Assembly: GCA_033816765.1 (NCBI GenBank)
Contig: CM066297.1
Span: forward strand, 2,536,573-2,600,572
Direction of reading: 5' to 3'
DNA: 64,000 bases
From: Nothopassalora personata
Lineage: Eukaryota; Ascomycota; Dothideomycetes; Mycosphaerellales; Mycosphaerellaceae
Shown here: positions 7,723 through 64,000 of the stretch, one piece after another
Numbering within the stretch: the first letter of the stretch is position 1
How the letters are laid out: every line of letters begins with the position of its first letter
Program-made: the position numbers and the translations under genes
Notes under the pieces: generated by a model
What the model was told of the DNA's origin: nothing
The model's database searches: none
What the model saw: only the letters and a program-made list of their open reading frames with translations

Positions 7723-8483
7723 TTGATTGATTATTCCATTAACGTGCTATTTGAGTCAAAGACTATGCAACACGGGTCTCGAGAACGAGACCAAAATTTG
7801 AGAGAAGGAGAAAAGCCCCGTCGTACCCCGGACGTAAAAACTCCTTAAAAGATGCGAGCAACGCTCGCTATTCGAACCGTAAATCGAATATATTGCGGCG
7901 TAGTACGCGCGTACCCGGTAGTCGTGTCTTGTCGAGAATTGCGGTTTGTCGCCTTGCCCCGGGCGAGACAAGTTTTGCGCCCGTGTCTCGTTCTTGTTTT
8001 AAAAAGCCAAGCCGGCCGTACCCGTACGCACCGAGCAAAATCCCAAGAAACACCCGTTGCCTCTGTTTCAATCCAGTCGCGTTCTCCAGTCTCGAGTGTA
8101 GCTCCTCGGTCGCAGTGGCCTCGCTGTCGTCCCCCCCTCGGCCTCTCTTGGTTCCAGCCGTGCAGTATACGTGGTTTGCGCCCCTAAACGCCTCTCTTGG
8201 TTCCAGCCGGCAGTTTACGTGGTTTGCCGGGACGACAGGTAGACAGCGCCTTCGTTGTTCGAGCGACGTGTACGCTATGTACGTCGCTTTCCCTTCTCGC
8301 AGTTCCGGAGTTCTTGTTTGTAGATTTTGAGCGTATCTCGTTCGTTCGGTTCGTCCGACCTGTCTTTTCTTGTTTCGAGTCGAGTAGGCTTGTATTTTTC
8401 GAGAGAGAGAGTCTTAGTTTCTCTTCGTCGTAACGAAGATACTTACGTCGTCCGCCGCGTGAAGGCGCTCTCTATAGGACGAC
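7723..8483 (-). mobile_element. 761-bp non-autonomous non-LTR retroposon, copy 1
   Basis: This insertion in the copia element is exactly 761 bp, the same length as the inverted copy at 23347-24107. I see one difference (8088 A, which would be G in the other copy). There are no terminal repeats, and 14-bp target duplications flank it (7709-7722, 8484-8497). Orientation is minus: the 5' end at 8483 is a predicted HDV-like ribozyme, and the 3' end at 7723 is a short AATCAATCAA-type tail preceded by a hairpin. No ORF has a recognisable domain, so a LINE elsewhere in the genome would have to supply the enzymes. It is not RIPped although the host element is, so it is a late arrival. Confidence 0.85.
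8406..8483 (-). ncRNA. Predicted HDV-like ribozyme, retroposon copy 1
   Basis: This is identical to 23347-23424 read on the minus strand. P1 is GTCGTCC/GGACGAC, with the first base of the element as its first base, so predicted cleavage lies exactly at the element boundary. P2 (AGAGAG/CTCTCT), P3 (GCC/GGC), P4 and a CTAA J4/2 segment are all present; the details are given under copy 2. Confidence 0.66.
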
Positions 8484-23332: not shown

Positions 23333-23346
23333 TCCCTCTTTATCCT
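23333..23346. repeat. 14-bp target-site duplication (left), retroposon copy 2
   Basis: TCCCTCTTTATCCT here is repeated exactly at 24108-24121. It ends directly before the first base of the retroposon and so fixes the 5' end to the nucleotide. Confidence 0.92.
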
Positions 23347-23424
23347 GTCGTCCTATAGAGAGCGCCTTCACGCGGCGGACGACGTAAGTATCTTCGTTAC
23401 GACGAAGAGAAACTAAGACTCTCT
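23347..23424 (+). ncRNA. Predicted HDV-like self-cleaving ribozyme, retroposon copy 2
   Basis: The first 78 nt fit the nested double pseudoknot. P1 is GTCGTCC (23347-23353) with GGACGAC (23377-23383). J1/2 is TAT. P2 is AGAGAG (23357-23362) with CTCTCT (23419-23424). P3 is GCC (23364-23366) with GGC (23374-23376) closing a 7-nt loop TTCACGC. P1.1 can form between AC (23370-23371) and GT (23384-23385). P4 is TCTTCGT (23391-23397) with ACGAAGA (23402-23408). J4/2 contains CTAA (23413-23416), matching the C-N-R-A around the catalytic cytosine. P1 starts at the first base after the target duplication, so cleavage would release the exact retroposon 5' end, as known for R2 and other non-LTR elements. 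Departures: the first pair is G-C rather than G-U, and J4/2 is long at 10 nt. Confidence 0.68.
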
Positions 23425-24037
23425 CTCTCGAAAAATACAAGCCTACTCGACTCGAAACAAGAAAAGACAGGTCGGACGAACCGAACGAACGAGATACGCT
23501 CAAAATCTACAAACAAGAACTCCGGAACTGCGAGAAGGGAAAGCGACGTACATAGCGTACACGTCGCTCGAACAACGAAGGCGCTGTCTACCTGTCGTCC
23601 CGGCAAACCACGTAAACTGCCGGCTGGAACCAAGAGAGGCGTTTAGGGGCGCAAACCACGTATACTGCACGGCTGGAACCAAGAGAGGCCGAGGGGGGGA
23701 CGACAGCGAGGCCACTGCGACCGAGGAGCTACACTCGAGACCGGAGAACGCGACTGGATTGAAACAGAGGCAACGGGTGTTTCTTGGGATTTTGCTCGGT
23801 GCGTACGGGTACGGCCGGCTTGGCTTTTTAAAACAAGAACGAGACACGGGCGCAAAACTTGTCTCGCCCGGGGCAAGGCGACAAACCGCAATTCTCGACA
23901 AGACACGACTACCGGGTACGCGCGTACTACGCCGCAATATATTCGATTTACGGTTCGAATAGCGAGCGTTGCTCGCATCTTTTAAGGAGTTTTTACGTCC
24001 GGGGTACGACGGGGCTTTTCTCCTTCTCTCAAATTTT

Positions 24038-24055
24038 GGTCTCGTTCTCGAGACC
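24038..24055 (+). other. 3' hairpin of the retroposon
   Basis: GGTCTCG (24038-24044) pairs perfectly with CGAGACC (24049-24055) around the loop TTCT, about 50 nt before the 3' end. The mirror copy lies at 7775-7792. LINE reverse transcriptases often recognise such 3' stem-loops, but whether this one is used is inference. Confidence 0.6.
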
Positions 24056-24544
24056 CGTGTTGCATAGTCTTTGACTCAAATAGCACGTTAATGGAATAAT
24101 CAATCAATCCCTCTTTATCCTACTATCCGACGTAATAAATAGCGACGCGACAAACGGCGACGCGACATAAACCTAAGGAAGAGAAGAGGAGGTTCTAGGT
24201 TAGCTTATTACTAAGAGTAACATCTACTATAAGTAGCATAAGAAGGTACTCGACCGACTCTAAGAGATCGAAGAGGAGGATGCCGAGGCTACCGAGCTTA
24301 ATTTAGCTAACCTGTGTAGTAATGTATATATCAAGGACATTACTAAGGATAAGAGCGAAGAAGCTCTTACCCTAGGTGCGAAGAAGAGGAGGGTTACTAT
24401 TAATTAGTTTTAAGATGCATTTAAGTCCCTTAACGGACTAAGCGCTAAGAAATTTAAGAAGCGAGTTAACGACTACCCGGTAGAAATATATAAGATCCTC
24501 CGAGACATCGAGTTAGATTATCGGCGTACTTATAAGACAATTGC

Positions 24545-35616: not shown

Positions 35617-37698
35617 ATGCCTAGAGAAACTAACGCAGCAAAGACCTCGACAGGTCGCGTTGACACCGACAACATGTCCCAGGACACACAGGCACAGAAC
35701 GGCATGCCGCCACCGGCAAAGCCACTAGGCAAGCGTACACGCACCTCTCTTTTCCCCGATCTTTCCTCTTTCCCTCAGAGTCAGACTCAAGGAGACGACA
35801 CCCGGCGAGTCACAGTAGACACCGGTGCCGCGCTTCAGCAAGAGTTGGACGAGGCTTACGAAGAGGCATCGGACAGCGAGGCAAAGGGAAAGGTTGACTT
35901 CACAGATCTCTTCGAACCGAAAGTCCTCCAAGAGGAGGGCCAAGAACATACGGTCTTCACATCGCTCGACGTACCCGAACACATCGCCGCTGCCGACTTC
36001 ACAGATGTCGAGCTAGACGACCTCGTCGAGTTGGTCAAGGACCACCCGAAGACCCTCTATGACTTCATCCTACGTGGATTCAACACAGCAGTGATGAAGG
36101 GTAAGCAGCTCAGTGTACTCGAGCGCGCGAACGCACATCAGAATAGCCAGTACCGCACCCTGTACGCCGAATACGACCGCATTCATGGAATGCTGCAGAC
36201 CGAGAAGGCCGCTTTGAGCAAGATGGCCCGAGACCTCAAGGACAAGAACGCCGACTCTACTAAGGCGCAGGAGCTTCGGAAGAAGTATGATGCTGCGAAC
36301 GACCTATGCAAGAAGTTCGCCGACATCACGAATCAAGAGAAGAAGAGGGCTCGAACAGCCGAGAACAAGAACAAGACACTACAAGACGAGATCACCCAGT
36401 TGAAGACTCGCCTGCAGGCAGCAGAGGACAACAACAATGCCCGCTGCTCACGCTCTCGAGGCCGCACCCATTCGCGACCACGCTCACACCGCTCCCAATC
36501 ACGCCCTGTCCTACGTGAGACTTCCCTTGAAGCTCTCCAGCGTCAGTATCGTGAGGCAGTGGGCGGCGGCGGCGGTGGAGGTGGGGACGATGGCGATGAT
36601 GACGACGACTCGGGTGACAAGGACAATGACCAAGGACGCAACAACCGACCACTGCCGCGTCGCAACGAGCGTCAAGAATCACACCGCACTGCTAGAGGCC
36701 GCAGCAACCGCACACAGACACCACTGGTCGACCTGCCAGAGCGCCTCCTCAACATCGACGACTTGCTGGATCGCAATATGAAGATCGGCAAGGGCGTGCC
36801 AGACCCACGCAAGTTCAAGAACGACGAAGAGCCCACCTACGACAGTTGGTACACCAGTATCCTACTAAAACTGACAGTGGCGACCTTTCGCACCGAGCAG
36901 GATGGCCTGCGCTTCTTGTATGGCTGGACTGATGGAGAAGTTCAGAAGACCATTAAGCCGCGCATTCCCATCCCCGGACATCTGGCCTACAACGAGTTCA
37001 AGACTGGCGAAGAACTGTTGGACTGGATGACTCGACAGTATGGCGCTCGTAATGAGGCCACCAAGGCTGCAGTGGACATTACGAGCTGCAAGCAGCAACA
37101 GAAGGAGACGTTTGTCGCATTCCACGCCCGCTACTCGAAGCTGCGAGCGTGGATGGACTGGAGCGATGAGACGGAGCTTATGTTGTTTCGAACCCGTCTA
37201 AATCGCAAGTACTATGTCAAGACCTTCGGCGACCGTGAAGTGGATCGCCGCCTACACAGCATGCTGGACGTCATCGAGGAGTGCACCGCATTGGACGAGA
37301 GCTTCTACGAGACTGAGCAGCTGTACCCTCAAGAGAGCCGTCCACGTGGCAATGGAGGCAACCAGAACCCCGGCAACCAGACCCAGGGCGACACTGCTGC
37401 TGCCGCCGCTGCTGGGGCTGCTGGCGCTGTCGTGCAGCGTCCACCACAGTACGCCGGCACCAAGAAGAAGGAAGACTTGCCAGCCTACCTTCAGAACCTT
37501 ACACCGCTCAACCGTGAGGGCCGTGAGGAACTGAAGAAACAGGGCAAGTGCTTCCGCTGCCGCACTGGACTGCACGTGTCAAGCAACACCGAGTGCCCCA
37601 TGTACGGCTACGACGGCGATTACCGCCCACCGCGTCCACGCAAGGACCCGAACCTCAGCTCCCTCGGCGCTGAGGGAAATGGCGAGACCGCTGCCTAA
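35617..37698 (+). CDS. gag: Element B Gag polyprotein (693 aa)
   Basis: This is the virus-like-particle protein of element B. Order by approximate residue: Ser/Thr-rich N terminus; long coiled coil at 185-275 (TEKAALSKMARDLKDKNAD, then KKRARTAENKNKTLQDEI); an Arg/Ser stretch (CSRSRGRTHSRPRSHR); a poly-Gly then poly-Asp segment near 315-335; retrotransposon gag domain at 370-580 (WYTSILLKLTVATFRTEQDG onward); an Ala-rich linker; and a zinc knuckle CFRCRTGLHVSSNTEC near 656-671 with wider than usual His-Cys spacing. The ATG at 35617 is 145 nt after the LTR. The stop TAA (37696-37698) overlaps pol in the -1 frame. Confidence 0.95.
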   Translation: MPRETNAAKTSTGRVDTDNMSQDTQAQNGMPPPAKPLGKRTRTSLFPDLSSFPQSQTQGDDTRRVTVDTGAALQQELDEAYEEASDSEAKGKVDFTDLFEPKVLQEEGQEHTVFTSLDVPEHIAAADFTDVELDDLVELVKDHPKTLYDFILRGFNTAVMKGKQLSVLERANAHQNSQYRTLYAEYDRIHGMLQTEKAALSKMARDLKDKNADSTKAQELRKKYDAANDLCKKFADITNQEKKRARTAENKNKTLQDEITQLKTRLQAAEDNNNARCSRSRGRTHSRPRSHRSQSRPVLRETSLEALQRQYREAVGGGGGGGGDDGDDDDDSGDKDNDQGRNNRPLPRRNERQESHRTARGRSNRTQTPLVDLPERLLNIDDLLDRNMKIGKGVPDPRKFKNDEEPTYDSWYTSILLKLTVATFRTEQDGLRFLYGWTDGEVQKTIKPRIPIPGHLAYNEFKTGEELLDWMTRQYGARNEATKAAVDITSCKQQQKETFVAFHARYSKLRAWMDWSDETELMLFRTRLNRKYYVKTFGDREVDRRLHSMLDVIEECTALDESFYETEQLYPQESRPRGNGGNQNPGNQTQGDTAAAAAAGAAGAVVQRPPQYAGTKKKEDLPAYLQNLTPLNREGREELKKQGKCFRCRTGLHVSSNTECPMYGYDGDYRPPRPRKDPNLSSLGAEGNGETAA
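37674..37680 (+). promoter_or_regulatory. Putative -1 frameshift site GGGAAAT in element B
   Basis: In the gag frame this reads G GGA AAT, a fitting X XXY YYZ heptamer, 15 nt before the gag stop. The pol frame has a stop TGA at 37671-37673 and opens exactly at 37674, so pol can only be entered at or after this heptamer. Element 1 has GGGAAAA at the matching place. Confidence 0.7.
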
Positions 37699-37700
37699 GC

Positions 37701-40700
37701 GTGGCAGACAGTGGTCAACCGAACATCCAAGGACAGAAAGAGCATGAGATTGAGAGACACAGAGTGCAAGAGATGGACTATGAGGAGGGGGAACTGAAGA
37801 TATCAGCCTGCGCGCTAGAGCCGCAGCAGCCAGATGTACACCCTCACATAGTCCTGCCAGTAAGGATACAACATGAAAAGGCAAGAGGCCTTGTAGACTC
37901 TGCTTCCACCTCTCTCTTTCTGGATTGGAAGTTCACACGCAAACATATAATACCCTTATCCCCTCTGGTAAAAAGCAAGAACCTGACCCTGGGCAATGGC
38001 AAGTCTAGCGGCCGACGTATCACCCATGCAGCCCTGGTTGATGTCGACATCAAGGGTCACCGCGAGCAGATGCTATGTTACGTCACCGACCTTGAATACG
38101 ACGTCGTCCTTGGCCTGCCATGGTTGAGTGCTCACAACCCCGACATCTTCTGGGAGACCGGCGAAGTGGCTTTCAGATCGGACTACTGCTTTGGTCACTG
38201 TCTTCATAACAAGACGTCGACAACCGTACAGTCACTGAACCACCAACACCGTGCTCGCAAGGACACAACGAAATACGGACCGGAGCCCTTCACTAGTGAG
38301 TCAGGGGGATTCACAGCAGGAGGGGCAGAATTGAACGTGTCATCCATGGACCTGGATGATGACGGAGAGGTTGAGTGCATTGAAGTCACGCAACGAGCCT
38401 GGGAGATGTACGCGCACCGGCCTGGGGCCAAGTGCTTCTACGTCCTGCCCACGGGTGAGGAGTGTGACGAGAATGGCAACCTAAAGCTGAGCGCAATGGC
38501 AGCTGATGACCTGGATCAGTTTCTGAACAAGGAGTTCAACCATAACCCGAAGGAAAAGCTGCCACCAGAATATCATCATCTGGCAGACACCTTCTCGGCA
38601 AAGGACCATGATGTGCTGCCACCGCACAGACCCGGCATCGACCATGAGATTCACATCAAGCCAGATGGCCCGCAGGAGCCGCCATATCGCAAACCCTATG
38701 GTCTCGCTCCGCAAGAAAACGAGGCCGTCAAGAAATGGATCACTGAGCAAGAAGGACCTGGCAAGATCAGACCAGCAGGGCAGAAGACAAGTCAATCCCC
38801 AGCACCTGTGCTTGTGGTGCGCAAGCCAGGCGGAGGACTGCGAGTGTGCATCGACTACCGCGGGTTGAATGCAATCACTATCAAGAACAGATACCCGATA
38901 CCGTTGATTCAGGAGACGCTAAACCGCATGCACGGCAAGAAGTACTTCACGAAGCTGGATATCGTCGCAGCCTTCAACAAGCTTCGCATTGCAGAAGGGC
39001 ACGAATGGCTTACAGCATTCGCTACACGGTATGGCGTGTACGAATGCCTCGTGCTGCCATTTGGCCTTTGCAATGGTCCCGCATCTTTTCAGTCTTACAT
39101 CAACAAGGTGCTGCAAGAACATCTAGACGACTTTGTGTCAGCCTACCTCGACGATGTGCTAATCTTTAGCGATACGCTCGAAGAGCACATCGAGCACGTG
39201 AAGAAGGTGCTCACGAAGCTGCGCGACGCTGGGCTTACAGTGGACATTGACAAGTGTGAATTCCACCAGCAGCGGGTGAAGTACCTTGGCCTAATCATCA
39301 CGCCTGAGGGCATTGAGATGGACCTAGAGAAGCTCGAGTGCATTCAGACCTGGGAAGCGCCTTCCAACCTGAAGGACGTACAAGCTTTCTTGGGATTCGC
39401 CAACTTTTATAGGAGATTCATCGAGGCATTCTCGAGGTTGGCGGCACCGCTGACAGATCTGACCAAATCAAATGGGCCAAGTAACCACAAGAACCGCAAG
39501 GTCAACTGGACACCAGAGTGTCAGCGGGCATTTGATGCACTAAAGGCGGCATTTAGCAAAGCTGGGATGCTTGCGCACTACGTGCCAGGGCGACAGACGG
39601 TTGTCGAAACGGACTCCTCCGACTTCGTCAACGCAGGCGTGTTGTCGCAATACGATGAGAACGGAGTACTGCATCCTGTCGCGTTCTACTCGAAGAAGCT
39701 AAGCCCGCAAGAGTGCAATTACGAAATCTATGACAAGGAGCTTTTGGCAATCATTAAGGCTTTTGAGGAATGGCGGCCAGAGCTGGCCTGTGAGGGTGAC
39801 GATGACACTATTGAACCAGTCAAGGTGTTCACTGATCACAAGAACCTCGAGTACTTCATGACCACGAAGCAGCTAAACAGGCGCCAAGCGCGCTGGGCTG
39901 AATTCCTGTCACAGTTCAACTTTCGAATCATATATCGACCAGGTGTCCAGGGAACGAAACCTGACAGCCTCACGAGACGCAGCCAGGACCTTCCGCAGGG
40001 GGTGGACGATCCGCGTAATCAGCATCAGCACCAGACGTTGCTGCCGCCTGAGCGATTCCTTAAGATCGACTCGATGCGCGCAACTATAGAGGACGTAGCT
40101 GAGGAGACTACACCACTGAACCTAGAAGCCACAGAGTTCACACGAACAGCAGCCACTGCTGCCGAGCCGCAGGCGGAGTCGGTCCAGGACGCAATACGAG
40201 AAGCCGAACTCGAATACCGCATGACAACAGCCTATGCCGTGGATACAGAGTTGAATGCAGCAATCAAGACACTGCAGAAGGGGGATGCCATCCCTACACT
40301 GCTTCAGAAGGCTAAGGTGCACCCAGTGCACTGCAAAGTAGAAGGTGATCTACTGTACGTACGCAATCAGTATGGTGGATGGAGCCTGTGGGTGCCGGAT
40401 GATCGAACACTGCGCACTCGCATTATCCGAATGAACCATGACCCGCCAGCCGCAGGACACCCAGGCAGAGCACGCACCTACGAGCTCGTGGCACGTGAAT
40501 TCTACTGGCCTGGCTTGGCACGGTCAGTGCGCAGGTACACCGGCAATTGCCGGCCTTGTCGCACGACGAAATCTCTGCACACCCAGCCACCGGGTTTGCT
40601 GCACCCACTTTCGGTACCAGAAAGACCATGGCAACACATCGCAGTAGACTTCGTAGTCGACCTGCCACCGAGCGAACTCGACGGCATGACCTACACTAAC

Positions 40701-42509
40701 ATCATGACTGTCACAGACAGGCTCACGAAGGAAGTGGAACTGATACCTATTGGCGCTATGACAGCGCAGAACGCTGCAAGGTTGTTCCTCAAGCACGTCT
40801 TTTGCCGACACGGCTTCCCTGACACTATCACTTCAGATCGCGGCAAGCAGTTCATAGCCACCTTCTGGAAACGCCTGTGCAAGATGCTCCGCACAGAGAG
40901 GAAGCTGAGTTCTTCCTATCACCCCCAGACCGATGGGCAGTCAGAACGTACTAACCAGGCAATGGAGCAGTACCTACGAGCCTTCATCAATGAGTCGCAG
41001 AGTGACTGGGCAGAATGGCTCCCCCTGGCCCAATTTGCAATGAACAACCACGTGTCAGAGACTACGGGTGTGTCACCATTCTACGCCAACCTAGGCTACA
41101 ACCCCGAGTTCACCGAGCGCATTGATCTGCAAGCCGGTAAAGACCGTAACCTCACGACTATCCAGCGACTCGACAGCAAATCAGCTGAGGCGTTCGCCCG
41201 ACGGATCTGTGAGCTGCATCGCAACCTTCAAGAGAACATGCGAATGTCACAAGCACTTCAAGCGGAAGCAGCAAACAGGCACCGCAGCATCTCGCCAGAC
41301 TACAAGGTTGGCGACTGGGTGTATCTGAGCACGAAGAACATCCGCACGACACGACCGTCGAAGAAGCTCGACCGCAAGTACGCCGGCCCATACCAGATCA
41401 CGGAGGTTATGCCGGCGAAGCTATCATATAAGCTGAACCTGTCTGATGCCCTTGCAGGACTAGACAATTGCTTTCACACGTCACTACTTCAGCGCGCTGA
41501 CAGCCCCGATCTCCTACCGCTCGAGGGACAACGGCTGGCGCCACCCCCAGCCATCACGATTGAACCAGACACGAGAGAAGCCGAAGCTGCAGCAGACGTT
41601 ACCGCACCAACACTCGAATACGAGGTGGACAAGATCTTAGACATGTACACCCGCAAGAGGGCTGGCAAGGTGAAGAAAGGAAAGAAGCGCAACGTGGACA
41701 CTTGGTACAAGGTGCGCTGGACAGGATATCAGGATATGGAAGATGGAGAAACCTGGCAACCAGCTGAGGACTTGCTTGTGAAAGCAGCCGCCGCTCTTGC
41801 AGACTTTCACCATAACCGGCCGGAGTTATCCACACCTGCAGGCTTTGCAGCTCCATCCGACTGGTCCCCACCAGACAATGAGGTGCTCGGACTCAACACG
41901 ATCAGGGTCAAGCAAGACACCGTCACGATTGAGCCAGCCGGAGCCTTGCCTCTGATGGAATCGGGTCAGCGCATGTTCACCACGCACCGCTGCACTGACC
42001 AGGTTACGAGACAGCCCGTCGTCACAACTGAGGTCACCGGCGCCAGCCGTCCTCAGCTCTGCGATAGCACAGGCAGTTGTACCGATGCTTTAGTAAGACC
42101 TGCAGAGCCTGCAATGATACCCAACCTTAGTCACAAGGATCAGACGCGAGTGTCCGCCGAAGACAGACTTAGGTCTAGGTCGGGCCAGCTAGCCAAGCAA
42201 TGCGAGTCTAAAGCAGACACCGCAGCGAAAGAGATGTGCGACGCGGAGATTGCAGTGAAGGAGATGGACGACGATCTGGAGGATGACTGGACGTTTGCAC
42301 GGTTATGGAGCTCGACAGGCAAAGGTGACAAGTGGCCACACAAGACGGAGCAAGTGAATAAACGAATGAAGGAGCGACACGCTCAGAGGACTGAGGCGAC
42401 TTTTGAGAGGGGGGGTACTGTCACGGGCAGCCCGCGACCCTTCACTGACGATGCGTCGTCCCGGGTGAACCTCGGACCTTCTGCATCGGGACTAGCGGCT
42501 TGGCGTTAG
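37701..42509 (+). CDS. pol: Element B Pol polyprotein (about 1600 aa)
   Basis: This makes protease, reverse transcriptase, RNase H and integrase; the frame is open from 37674 and is probably expressed by -1 frameshift. Protease: LVDSASTSLFLDW near residue 57 and VVLGLPWLSAHNP. RT: RVCIDYRGLNAI, KLDIVAAFN, LPFGLCNGPASF and YLDD at 482-485. RNase H: VVETDSSDFVNAG, then YDKELLAII and KPDSLTRRS. Integrase: His-Cys zinc site (H-x-GHPG...C-RPC), catalytic core with AVDF at about 981-984, TSDRGKQF, and the Glu in the YHPQTDGQSERTNQ helix. GPY/F module: RKYAGPYQITEV. Chromodomain at about 1300-1365: VDKILDMYTRKR, WYKVRWTGYQ, ETWQPAEDL. A 200-residue unassigned tail ends 91 nt inside the 3' LTR. No break is visible. 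Confidence 0.96.
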   Translation: MADSGQPNIQGQKEHEIERHRVQEMDYEEGELKISACALEPQQPDVHPHIVLPVRIQHEKARGLVDSASTSLFLDWKFTRKHIIPLSPLVKSKNLTLGNGKSSGRRITHAALVDVDIKGHREQMLCYVTDLEYDVVLGLPWLSAHNPDIFWETGEVAFRSDYCFGHCLHNKTSTTVQSLNHQHRARKDTTKYGPEPFTSESGGFTAGGAELNVSSMDLDDDGEVECIEVTQRAWEMYAHRPGAKCFYVLPTGEECDENGNLKLSAMAADDLDQFLNKEFNHNPKEKLPPEYHHLADTFSAKDHDVLPPHRPGIDHEIHIKPDGPQEPPYRKPYGLAPQENEAVKKWITEQEGPGKIRPAGQKTSQSPAPVLVVRKPGGGLRVCIDYRGLNAITIKNRYPIPLIQETLNRMHGKKYFTKLDIVAAFNKLRIAEGHEWLTAFATRYGVYECLVLPFGLCNGPASFQSYINKVLQEHLDDFVSAYLDDVLIFSDTLEEHIEHVKKVLTKLRDAGLTVDIDKCEFHQQRVKYLGLIITPEGIEMDLEKLECIQTWEAPSNLKDVQAFLGFANFYRRFIEAFSRLAAPLTDLTKSNGPSNHKNRKVNWTPECQRAFDALKAAFSKAGMLAHYVPGRQTVVETDSSDFVNAGVLSQYDENGVLHPVAFYSKKLSPQECNYEIYDKELLAIIKAFEEWRPELACEGDDDTIEPVKVFTDHKNLEYFMTTKQLNRRQARWAEFLSQFNFRIIYRPGVQGTKPDSLTRRSQDLPQGVDDPRNQHQHQTLLPPERFLKIDSMRATIEDVAEETTPLNLEATEFTRTAATAAEPQAESVQDAIREAELEYRMTTAYAVDTELNAAIKTLQKGDAIPTLLQKAKVHPVHCKVEGDLLYVRNQYGGWSLWVPDDRTLRTRIIRMNHDPPAAGHPGRARTYELVAREFYWPGLARSVRRYTGNCRPCRTTKSLHTQPPGLLHPLSVPERPWQHIAVDFVVDLPPSELDGMTYTNIMTVTDRLTKEVELIPIGAMTAQNAARLFLKHVFCRHGFPDTITSDRGKQFIATFWKRLCKMLRTERKLSSSYHPQTDGQSERTNQAMEQYLRAFINESQSDWAEWLPLAQFAMNNHVSETTGVSPFYANLGYNPEFTERIDLQAGKDRNLTTIQRLDSKSAEAFARRICELHRNLQENMRMSQALQAEAANRHRSISPDYKVGDWVYLSTKNIRTTRPSKKLDRKYAGPYQITEVMPAKLSYKLNLSDALAGLDNCFHTSLLQRADSPDLLPLEGQRLAPPPAITIEPDTREAEAAADVTAPTLEYEVDKILDMYTRKRAGKVKKGKKRNVDTWYKVRWTGYQDMEDGETWQPAEDLLVKAAAALADFHHNRPELSTPAGFAAPSDWSPPDNEVLGLNTIRVKQDTVTIEPAGALPLMESGQRMFTTHRCTDQVTRQPVVTTEVTGASRPQLCDSTGSCTDALVRPAEPAMIPNLSHKDQTRVSAEDRLRSRSGQLAKQCESKADTAAKEMCDAEIAVKEMDDDLEDDWTFARLWSSTGKGDKWPHKTEQVNKRMKERHAQRTEATFERGGTVTGSPRPFTDDASSRVNLGPSASGLAAWR

Positions 42510-62173: not shown

Positions 62174-62302
62174 TAGCTAAGGTAGGAATCGAACCTACGA
62201 CCTCCCTTCTAAACGGTAAGTATAAGGAAATATTTAAGGGTATAAGCCGAAAAGATTCCTATATAACGCTAGAAAGACGCTCTACTACTAAGCTACTTAA
62301 CC
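62174..62302 (-). tRNA. RIP-altered tRNA-like gene with intron (anticodon AGC, Ala?)
   Basis: On the minus strand: acceptor GGTTAAG pairs with CTTAGCT; D arm GCTT-AGTAGTA-GAGC (canonical AGTGGTA with TG changed to TA); anticodon stem TCTTT pairs with AAGGG; loop begins CTAGC; T arm GTAGG-TTCGATT-CCTAC is perfect. About 55 nt separate the two anticodon-arm halves after position 37, where nuclear tRNA introns sit. The anticodon would be AGC (Ala), or GGC before RIP. It lies in the 3' tail of E1 and is probably dead. Confidence 0.55.
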
Positions 62303-63263: not shown

Positions 63264-63689
63264 TAGAGCTATAAGGGAATATCGTAATATATAGTACGCC
63301 TACGACCTCGTAGTAGTAGATAAACTAAATCTTACCTTCTTCTATAGACGTATTACGCGTTGCTTTATATACGTATATACGTTATGCACGGCTTACTAAG
63401 CCGAGCGTAGCTATATGTTATATATAAGAGTTAGCTATAGGCTATCCTTATAAGATCGTAATAAAAAATAGGTAGCTTTAATTAGTTATCTATAGCCTTT
63501 TTATTCTATAGTAATCTTTAGTCTTAAATAGATATATATAATATACTACTAGATTTTAAATTATCTAATATATAGGCCTAAACTAAGTAAATAATTTAAC
63601 TAATTAGCTTACTATAACGCGGTAGTTTATGCCTAAGACTAAATAGGCTAAAGCCTAATTGCACTTAGATTGTAACATTAGGAAGCTAT
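63264..63689. repeat. Old dispersed repeat and AT-rich RIPped DNA
   Basis: 63264-63450 matches 15296-15490 in the same orientation and was the target of E1. The rest to 63689 is TpA-rich with no recognisable content. Confidence 0.7.
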
Positions 63690-64000
63690 GCTCGAGATCG
63701 GGAGAACGCGACCGGGAAAGAAATAGAGGAGACGGGCATTTCAGGATTTCGCTCGGTGCGTACTACGGATAAAACCGGCGCGGCAATTCGAGAATTTTTT
63801 CTTTAGGGCACGACGTAACACTTATCTTACCCGGTGTAAGGCGACAACCCGTGTTACGATACAAGTACAAGACTACCGGGGGCGGCGTACTACCGTAACA
63901 ATATTCGTTGACTCTCTTACGCGAATTTGTGTCCTTTCGAAGAGTTCTTATGTCCGGGTACGCGGGGATTTTCTCTTCATAATTTTGAATTTCGGTCGTG
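63690..64000 (+). mobile_element. 5'-truncated, diverged retroposon copy 3
   Basis: This aligns with about 23728-24045 of retroposon copy 2 in the same orientation (CTCGGTGCGTAC, GTCCGGGTACGCGGGG and others) with many substitutions. The first 380 nt, including the ribozyme, are absent; 5' truncation is typical of target-primed reverse transcription. It runs off the window end. Confidence 0.8.

What the first reader, a model, noticed from the sequence alone, without database searches (positions are those of the whole stretch)
23347..23424. HDV-like ribozyme exactly at the 5' end of a fungal non-autonomous retroposon
The 5' boundary is fixed independently by a 14-bp target duplication, and the very next base starts P1 (GTCGTCC/GGACGAC). 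P2, P3, the two-pair P1.1, P4 and a CTAA J4/2 segment all fall in the right order and at plausible distances. Non-LTR elements such as R2 and RTE are known to release their 5' ends with HDV-like ribozymes. A 761-bp non-autonomous fungal element that does so would be a compact SINE-like parasite of such a LINE. The second full copy (8406-8483, minus) has the same sequence and boundary.
Basis: partly seen in the sequence, partly recalled or inferred. Interest (0 to 1): 0.93.

Follow-up and report, generated by a model that had tools for sequence, protein, structure and literature searches.

The report
Ribozyme-headed SINE-like retroposon in a fungus
A short, recently active jumping sequence in a fungal genome begins exactly with what looks like a self-cutting RNA of the hepatitis-delta type, which would trim the element out of longer host transcripts before a partner element copies it back into DNA.

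Summary
Window 23347-23424 (and 8483-8406, minus) has the helices of an HDV-like double pseudoknot, starting at the first base of a 761-bp retroposon. In 9 of 10 copies a 12-14-nt target duplication abuts that base; the tenth has one extra nucleotide. The genome holds 290 copies of the first 37 nt (reversed control 0) and 312 matching 3' ends. Diverged subfamilies keep the fold, with double compensatory changes in P1 and P4 but no clear signal for P2. Two of three features published for cleaving fungal HDV variants are present (PMC5640933): an extra C between P2 and P3, and a loop E-like motif by P4. Rfam gives only sub-threshold HDV hits (19.9 of 44 bits). A LINE with seven intact 1110-aa ORF2 copies shares the element's last 55 bp at 94.5%. 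No ribozyme was found in the 11 LINE copies examined, and LINE 5' ends are ragged (10-94 copy-specific nt in five copies). So this is not an internally deleted form of that LINE, but a retroposon with ribozyme head and LINE tail. Cleavage is inferred, not shown. Eight literature searches listed no paper tying fungal HDV variants to retroposons.

The parts
23333..23346 (.). 5' target-site duplication TCCCTCTTTATCCT, abutting the ribozyme
23347..23424 (+). HDV-like ribozyme domain, 78 nt; predicted cleavage 5' of G23347
   Evidence: sub-threshold RF02682 match starting at 23347, 19.9 bits
23347..23353 (+). P1 5' strand GTCGTCC (pairs with 23377-23383)
   Evidence: compensatory changes
23357..23362 (+). 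P2 5' strand AGAGAG (pseudoknot with 23419-23424), followed by the extra C23363
23364..23376 (+). P3 GCC / L3 TTCACGC / P3' GGC
   Evidence: RNAalifold prefers a register shifted by one, CGC/GCG
23377..23383 (+). P1 3' strand GGACGAC
23386..23417 (+). AAGTA - P4 (TCTTCGT TACG ACGAAGA) - GAAACTAAG: loop E-like AGUA/GAA around P4, and J4/2 with the catalytic-C candidate C23413
   Evidence: loop E in fungal HDV variants from PMC5640933; the AGUA/GAA consensus is recalled
23419..23424 (+). P2 3' strand CTCTCT
23425..24052 (+). element body; no sense-strand ORF with an ATG/GTG/TTG start above 71 aa, stop-to-stop frames up to 181 codons without a Pfam match over cut-off; two related units of about 40 nt at about 23603-23640 and 23651-23690
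24053..24107 (+). 3' end (element 707-761) shared with the partner LINE at 94.5% identity, ending in an (AATC)n tail
24108..24121 (.). 3' target-site duplication
7723..8483 (-). second full copy of the element (ribozyme 8483-8406), with target duplication TAGAGATAACTATA

Best explanation
The 78 nt are an HDV-like self-cleaving ribozyme, close to the fungal loop E type, forming the head of a non-autonomous, SINE-like retroposon. Proposed mechanism: (1) the element is transcribed as part of host read-through RNA (inferred). (2) The ribozyme cuts immediately 5' of G23347, freeing an RNA with a fixed 5' end (inferred from fold, boundary and covariation). (3) The 3' end, nearly the same as that of a LINE with endonuclease and reverse transcriptase, recruits that LINE's machinery (supported by the shared tail and similar target-duplication lengths). 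(4) Target-primed reverse transcription runs to the ribozyme-made end and inserts a usually full-length copy flanked by a 12-14-nt duplication (the shared first base and the duplications are shown). Each full-length insertion again carries the ribozyme, so it can be released from whatever transcript it lands in.
For: Target duplications abut G1 in 9 of 10 copies read, with one extra A in the tenth. One family C copy (L155) has ACTACTATAAGTA abutting its P1. 290 places match the 5' 37 nt within 3 mismatches, control 0, and 312 match a 32-nt 3' stretch within 2, so few are 5'-truncated. On 25 chosen rows 90.4% of cells pair against 35-52% when slid, and 38 double-changed cells against 17.7 in shuffles, 0 of 500 reaching; only 4 of the 7 P1 pairs could be counted there. 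On 63 distinct rows P1 has 35 vs 18.2 and P4 45 vs 23.0 double-changed cells, 0 of 500 each. RNAalifold, given no structure, finds P1 (4 pairs), a P3-like helix and P4, with both-side changes in 8 of 11 pairs. In the 40 fetched loci found by a P3-L3 pattern alone, AAGTA is at its place in 35 of 40, the J4/2 catalytic C in 37 of 40 (T in 3), and P1 pairs 7, 6 or 5 of 7 in 17, 13 and 10. Both viral-contig matches to a similar half-pattern lacked the other half. RF02682 (an HDV ribozyme) was the only Rfam family matched in 7 related sources at E up to 5: three sources, two distinct copies, starting at P1 base 1. Fungal HDV variants with loop E and an extra nucleotide cleave in vitro (PMC5640933). 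In the 26 rows found without a pattern fixing it, that extra nucleotide is C in 19. Partner LINE: shared tail, 13-14-nt duplications in five copies.
Against: No cleavage assay. Rfam scores are far below gathering. P2, the key pseudoknot, does not covary beyond shuffles (6 vs 5.6 double-changed cells in 63 rows), nor does P3. The first P1 pair is mostly G-C, whereas published fungal variants typically have C-G; it is unpaired in 17 of 64 rows. P1.1 unresolved, P3 register ambiguous. Many old copies have broken P1 pairs through RIP-like changes. In the 26 rows found by the loop E half alone, only 11 have all three P3 pairs, 20 at least five P1 pairs, 18 at least five P2 pairs. MFE is not better than shuffles. 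Shuffle controls ignore relatedness, and the P1 register was chosen by best pairing.
Confidence: 0.86

Rival explanations
1. The precise 5' end is a Pol III (or other) transcription start, as in ordinary SINEs, and the terminal structure serves something else, such as RNA stability or protein binding.
For: Precise 5' ends also arise from fixed transcription starts; published A. fumigatus SINEs have tRNA- or 5S-derived heads (PMC5063351 passages). One loose A-box-like match at element position 207.
Against: No Rfam gathering-level match in the element; the window's only one is a tRNA elsewhere. No B-box match; a GGTTCGA lies only at position 606; T5 runs at 479 and 644 would tend to stop Pol III (the terminator rule is recalled). 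P1 and P4 covary in the layout of a self-cleaving class.
Confidence: 0.06
2. The conserved block is a mini-intron: GTAAGTAT as 5' splice site, ACTAAG as branch point, the CT tract before the 3' splice site.
For: GTAAGT fits a 5' splice site, and CTAAG followed by CTCTCTCTC looks branch point-like (sequence).
Against: The first G of GTAAGT is A in 14 of 64 rows. The branch-like motif ends in G in 39 of 40 loci found without selecting for it, against a CTRAY-type branch point (recalled). No conserved 3' AG was seen in the 40 loci printed (by eye). Does not explain P1 and P4 covariation or the element boundary.
Confidence: 0.02
3. HDV-like fold by descent, but catalytically dead: conservation within the window copy's family reflects one recent burst.
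For: Family A copies are nearly identical, so conservation within the family says little; P2 lacks significant covariation.
Against: The A, C and G copies compared have largely different bodies but keep head and tail; P1 and P4 show double changes; the 5' boundary is exact in 9 of 10 family A insertions.
Confidence: 0.06

Closest known systems
Fungal HDV ribozyme variants (PMC5640933; 230 representatives in 26 species, constructs from two species shown to cleave)
   Same: Extra nucleotide, mostly C, between P2 and P3; loop E-like AGUA/GAA next to P4; P1/P2/P3/P4 order
   Different: First P1 pair mostly G-C instead of C-G; here fixed at the 5' end of a multicopy retroposon, whereas the paper reports widely variable gene associations and its main text has no word beginning with transpos, retro or sine
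L1Tc / NARTc / SIDER HDV-like ribozymes of trypanosomatids (PMC4035085, passages seen)
   Same: HDV-like ribozyme at the 5' end of short non-autonomous non-LTR elements
   Different: There the short elements are truncated or degenerate relatives of LINEs with the same 5' ribozyme; here no such head was found in the tail-sharing LINE
R2 ribozyme and R2 SIDEs (PMC3414825, PMC3774820; only the start of the abstracts seen in search listings)
   Same: Ribozyme makes the precise 5' end of the element from a co-transcript
   Different: R2 inserts site-specifically in 28S rDNA and its short forms are internal deletions; here the target duplications of the ten copies read all differ
AfuSINE2-1a of Aspergillus fumigatus (PMC5063351, passages seen)
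   Same: Fungal SINE whose 3' end resembles a Tad1-type LINE
   Different: tRNA-related head; the word ribozyme does not occur in that paper
RF02682 HDV-F-prausnitzii
   Same: Best HDV-type Rfam match, starting at base 1 of P1
   Different: Family named for a bacterium; 18-20 bits against a gathering score of 44

Membership tests
HDV-like self-cleaving ribozymes | Nested pseudoknot P1-P2-P3-P1'-P4-P2' in order | tested here: met
   P1 and P4 covary, P2 and P3 not beyond shuffles
HDV-like self-cleaving ribozymes | Cleavage site at the 5' base of P1 | tested here: inconclusive
   P1 starts at the target-duplication boundary in 9 of 10 copies; cleavage not assayed
HDV-like self-cleaving ribozymes | Catalytic C in J4/2 | tested here: met
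   C in 37 of 40 loci found without selecting for it, T in 3; the 60 of 63 come from a parse that allowed only C or T
HDV-like self-cleaving ribozymes | P1.1 two-pair helix | tested here: inconclusive
   several registers fit
HDV-like self-cleaving ribozymes | Score over an Rfam HDV gathering threshold | tested here: not met
   19.9 bits vs 44 for RF02682; no HDV family at gathering
HDV-like self-cleaving ribozymes | Self-cleavage to 5'-OH and 2',3'-cyclic phosphate | not testable with these tools
   needs in vitro transcription
Fungal HDV variant (PMC5640933) | Extra nucleotide, mostly C, between P2 and P3 | tested here: met
   present in the window copy (C23363); C in 19 of 26 rows found without a pattern fixing it; the 57 of 64 include rows selected for it
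Fungal HDV variant (PMC5640933) | Loop E replacing part of P4 | tested here: met
   AAGTA at its place in 35 of 40 loci found without selecting for it, GAA before ACTAAG in most; consensus AGUA/GAA recalled, the paper's figure not seen
Fungal HDV variant (PMC5640933) | C-G pair at the cleavage site (typical, not universal) | tested here: not met
   G-C 33, G-T 7, A-T 6, C-G 1, unpaired 17 of 64 rows
SINE mobilised by a LINE | Non-coding, target duplications, 3' end shared with a LINE of the same genome | tested here: met
   mobilisation itself not tested
SINE in the strict sense | Pol III-transcribed head (tRNA, 5S or 7SL derived) | tested here: not met
   no such Rfam match, no B box; transcription itself not tested
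SIDE / NARTc type (internally deleted LINE) | 5' end derived from the partner LINE | tested here: not met
   no ribozyme hit in sequence held for 11 LINE copies, 9 of which include the common 5' core; no element 5' match in L057/L058

The most novel reading that the evidence does not exclude
A class of fungal retroposons in which a self-cleaving HDV-type ribozyme replaces the Pol III gene as SINE head, so that each copy is born by being cut out of host transcripts. The HDV variants reported across fungi would be heads, or stranded heads, of such elements.
Probability: 0.5. Interest if true: 0.85.

Novelty: new variant of a known kind. Interest (0 to 1): 0.77.

Why it matters
Cleaving HDV variants are known from 26 fungal species with widely variable gene associations (PMC5640933); I saw no role assigned to them in what I read. 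Here a close match to that type sits at the first base of recent insertions of an element with some 290 copies. That suggests what such ribozymes do, and it is checkable by asking whether the published ones also abut target duplications. It would also show that a LINE parasite can do without its own promoter by carrying a ribozyme, with a natural comparison in the same genome: precise 5' ends on the ribozyme-headed element, ragged 5' ends on the LINE whose machinery it appears to use.

Tried and rejected
Generic HDV descriptor as sole proof: rejected, chance-level over the window. The first bracket string for pair counts was misregistered; its counts are ignored and the count was repeated. Ribozyme-model hits at window 15294 (E 0.063) and 63295 (E 1.4) lie in another RIP-degraded repeat family and were rejected on alignment. 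Loop E-pattern matches L120, L129, L137 (look like internal SINE units), L151, L152 (unrelated) and L153 (looks like a degraded LINE 5' region) were rejected on reading. Short matches between the element and the LINE 5' region are at chance level (best E 0.72; the 9-mers touching the ribozyme core E 2.5). Four viral-contig matches to half-patterns are taken as chance; the 3' tail pattern gave none. Weak Pfam matches in the element's open frames are below cut-off. Mini-intron: see rivals. Literature: eight searches ran; for only 30 of 61, 15 of 992 and 15 of 23 papers were listed. Two older HDV papers are not held.

Rows dropped before counts: one search parsed 65 places, 64 distinct; one search counts 63 rows distinct after trimming. 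Its parse required an AAGTA-like and a GAAACTAAG-like motif and at least two P3 pairs, so the near-invariance of those motifs is partly by construction; one search gives the counts without that filter. A1 holds 25 hand-chosen rows, picked as diverse and less degraded (including L112). All 44 places were read (two in L054, 40, two); 36 of the 56 places were fetched.

Full report
What was checked. A nucleoside hydrolase exon in the window has best named relatives in Zasmidium cellare (73%) and Dothistroma septosporum (70%), so the host is probably a relative of the Mycosphaerellaceae (inference). The element occurs twice in the window. A whole-genome DNA search scored 40 of 460 candidates, and all 40 matched 1-761 at 100%. 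The first 37 nt occur 290 times within 3 mismatches (141 + 149), with no match for the reversed pattern. A 32-nt stretch near the 3' end occurs 312 times within 2 mismatches, reversed control 0. The thresholds differ, but the two counts suggest that few copies are 5'-truncated.

Boundary. Of ten copies read with both flanks, nine have a 12-14-nt target duplication abutting the first G of P1. In the tenth (L007) a 13-nt duplication is followed by one A (read by eye; the script reported none). The tail is about two to four AATC units. The ten target duplications all differ.

Fold. The 78 nt parse as P1 (7 bp), J1/2 TAT, P2 (6 bp), an extra C, P3 (3 bp), L3 of 7 nt, P1', GT, AAGTA, P4, GAAACTAAG, A, P2'. 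MFE folding contains P1, P3 and P4, but the energy equals that of shuffles (z 0.19). Rfam at gathering threshold finds nothing here. At relaxed threshold RF02682 (an HDV ribozyme) is one of four weak matches and begins exactly at 23347 (19.9 bits, E 0.09). In seven related sources RF02682 was the only family matched at E up to 5, in three sources that are two distinct copies (L119 and L156 overlap), each from P1 base 1. A loose generic descriptor gives 7 start positions in the window and 38 in 12 shuffled windows. It has no force by itself, although its chance of starting on a stated base is about 2.5e-5.

Comparative evidence. A pattern covering only the end of P2, the extra C, P3 and L3 (with T in L3, which excludes the window's exact sequence) found 44 places, reversed control 0. 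A pattern covering only the loop E/J4-2 half found 56 matches, reversed control 2. For the 40 loci of the first set fetched, and without any filter on the other half, AAGTA stands at its place in 35 of 40, the catalytic-C position is C in 37 and T in 3, and P1 has 7, 6 or 5 of 7 pairs in 17, 13 and 10 loci (P1 register chosen by best pairing). For the 26 parsed rows found by the second pattern alone, 20 have at least five P1 pairs, 18 at least five P2 pairs, 11 all three P3 pairs, and the extra nucleotide is C in 19; many are degraded. Viral-contig matches to either half did not carry a convincing other half.

The loci show several subfamilies with different P1, P2 and P4 letters. On 63 distinct rows P1 is 85% and P4 80% paired, with 35 and 45 double-changed cells against 18.2 and 23.0 in shuffles (0 of 500 each). 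P2 (6 vs 5.6) and P3 (1 vs 0.7) do not exceed shuffles. On 25 hand-chosen rows the structure with pseudoknots is 90.4% paired, against 35-52% when slid; 38 double-changed cells against 17.7, with 0 of 500 shuffles reaching; only four of the seven P1 pairs could be counted because the alignment gapped the rest. RNAalifold, given no structure, returns P1 (4 pairs), a P3-like helix in a register shifted by one, and P4, with both-side changes in 8 of 11 pairs. Relatedness of rows weakens the shuffle test. RIP-like C-to-T and G-to-A change degrades many old copies.

Architecture and partner. BLAST of the element against a LINE found by an endonuclease profile shows its last 55 bp in the LINE at 94.5% identity. 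This LINE has two ORFs (open frames of 431 and 1110 codons); ORF2 carries endonuclease and RT domains, with no RNase H found by Pfam. Seven copies have an uninterrupted 1110-aa ORF2, among 50 matches including degraded ones. Relatives include Sclerotinia RT proteins with RNase H; I did not test the clade. LINE target duplications are 13-14 nt in the five copies where they were found. One family C copy (L155, about 842 bp) and one family G copy (L156, about 587 bp) also have the ribozyme head and a LINE-like tail, with bodies that align only in part to the window element. In L155 the duplication abuts P1; in L156 a 10-13-nt match is separated from P1 by three nucleotides (AAG). For L154 (family D), L157 (family H) and L158 (family B) no tail was found in the 1.15-1.2 kb fetched.

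The contrast. In the five LINE copies (of 11 examined) where both ends and a duplication were found, 94, 46, 10, 41 and 15 nt of copy-specific sequence separate the duplication from the common LINE core. The start of the 94-nt spacer is unique in the genome within 3 mismatches. The ribozyme model finds nothing up to E = 1 in the sequence held for the 11 copies, 9 of which include the common 5' core. The LINE therefore has ragged 5' ends and no similar ribozyme that I could find, while the element, which appears to use its machinery, has fixed ends. This is what a ribozyme-made 5' end predicts. The element has no B-box match, one loose A-box-like match at 207, and T5 runs at 479 and 644, so I infer transcription by read-through.

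Known work. PMC5640933 (the section on HDV variants read whole, other passages by word search) reports 230 fungal HDV variants in 26 species, in vitro cleavage of constructs from two, a loop E in P4 and an extra nucleotide, mostly C, between P2 and P3, with widely variable gene associations. Its main text has no word beginning with transpos, retro or sine. Our motif meets those two features and not the third (C-G at the cleavage pair). PMC4035085 (passages) documents HDV-like ribozymes shared by trypanosomatid LINEs and their short forms. PMC3414825 and PMC3774820 (only the start of the abstracts in search listings) do so for R2. PMC5063351 (passages) describes a fungal SINE with a Tad1-like tail and a tRNA head; the word ribozyme does not occur in it. 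The eight searches that ran listed no paper tying fungal HDV ribozymes to retroposons; papers not listed or not held may exist.

Shown: boundary, copy number, covarying P1 and P4, shared LINE tail, no ribozyme found in the LINE copies examined. Inferred: self-cleavage, read-through transcription, mobilisation by this LINE. Unresolved: P1.1 register, P3 register, P2 by covariation, origin of the head.

Noticed in passing
L057, L058, L062, L064, L074 (partner LINE 5' ends): Between the target duplication and the common LINE core lie 10-94 nt of copy-specific sequence, beginning with CA in four of five; the one tested is unique in the genome. Origin unknown (5' transduction, template jumping, upstream transcription start).
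   Followed up: partly
L148 / L157 (G000:C9, about 1445870-1445990, minus): A ribozyme with 7-bp P1 and P4 and no LINE-like tail found in the stretch read, a few hundred bases upstream of an open, GC-rich, gene-like sequence (by eye): perhaps a stranded head in a host 5' region.
   Followed up: no
L081, L085, L103, L105-L107, L110, L115, L116: Nine ribozyme copies share nearly the same 25 nt upstream (up to three differences), so a larger repeat carrying the insertion seems to have been multiplied.
   Followed up: no
window 23347-24107; L057:1067-6411: The near-identical, apparently young SINE and LINE already have RIP-like dinucleotide composition (TA/AT 1.61 and 1.73; CA+TG over AC+GT 0.57 and 0.60), although these copies are not visibly degraded: they may be poor in RIP targets.
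   Followed up: partly
window 63684-63975: Piece 68% identical to element positions 381-676: body of a related family; no head found with model R1 beyond a rejected weak hit.
   Followed up: partly
window 23603-23690: Two related units of about 40 nt (AAACCACGTA..ACTGC..GGCTGGAACCAAGAGAGGC) in the element body; similar units seem to recur in family C (L155).
   Followed up: no
window 62174-62302 (minus): tRNA match spanning 129 bp by Rfam (43.8 bits), not called by ARAGORN.
   Followed up: no
window 35617-42509: Long, open Gypsy-type retrotransposon (RT, RNase H, integrase, chromodomain).
   Followed up: no
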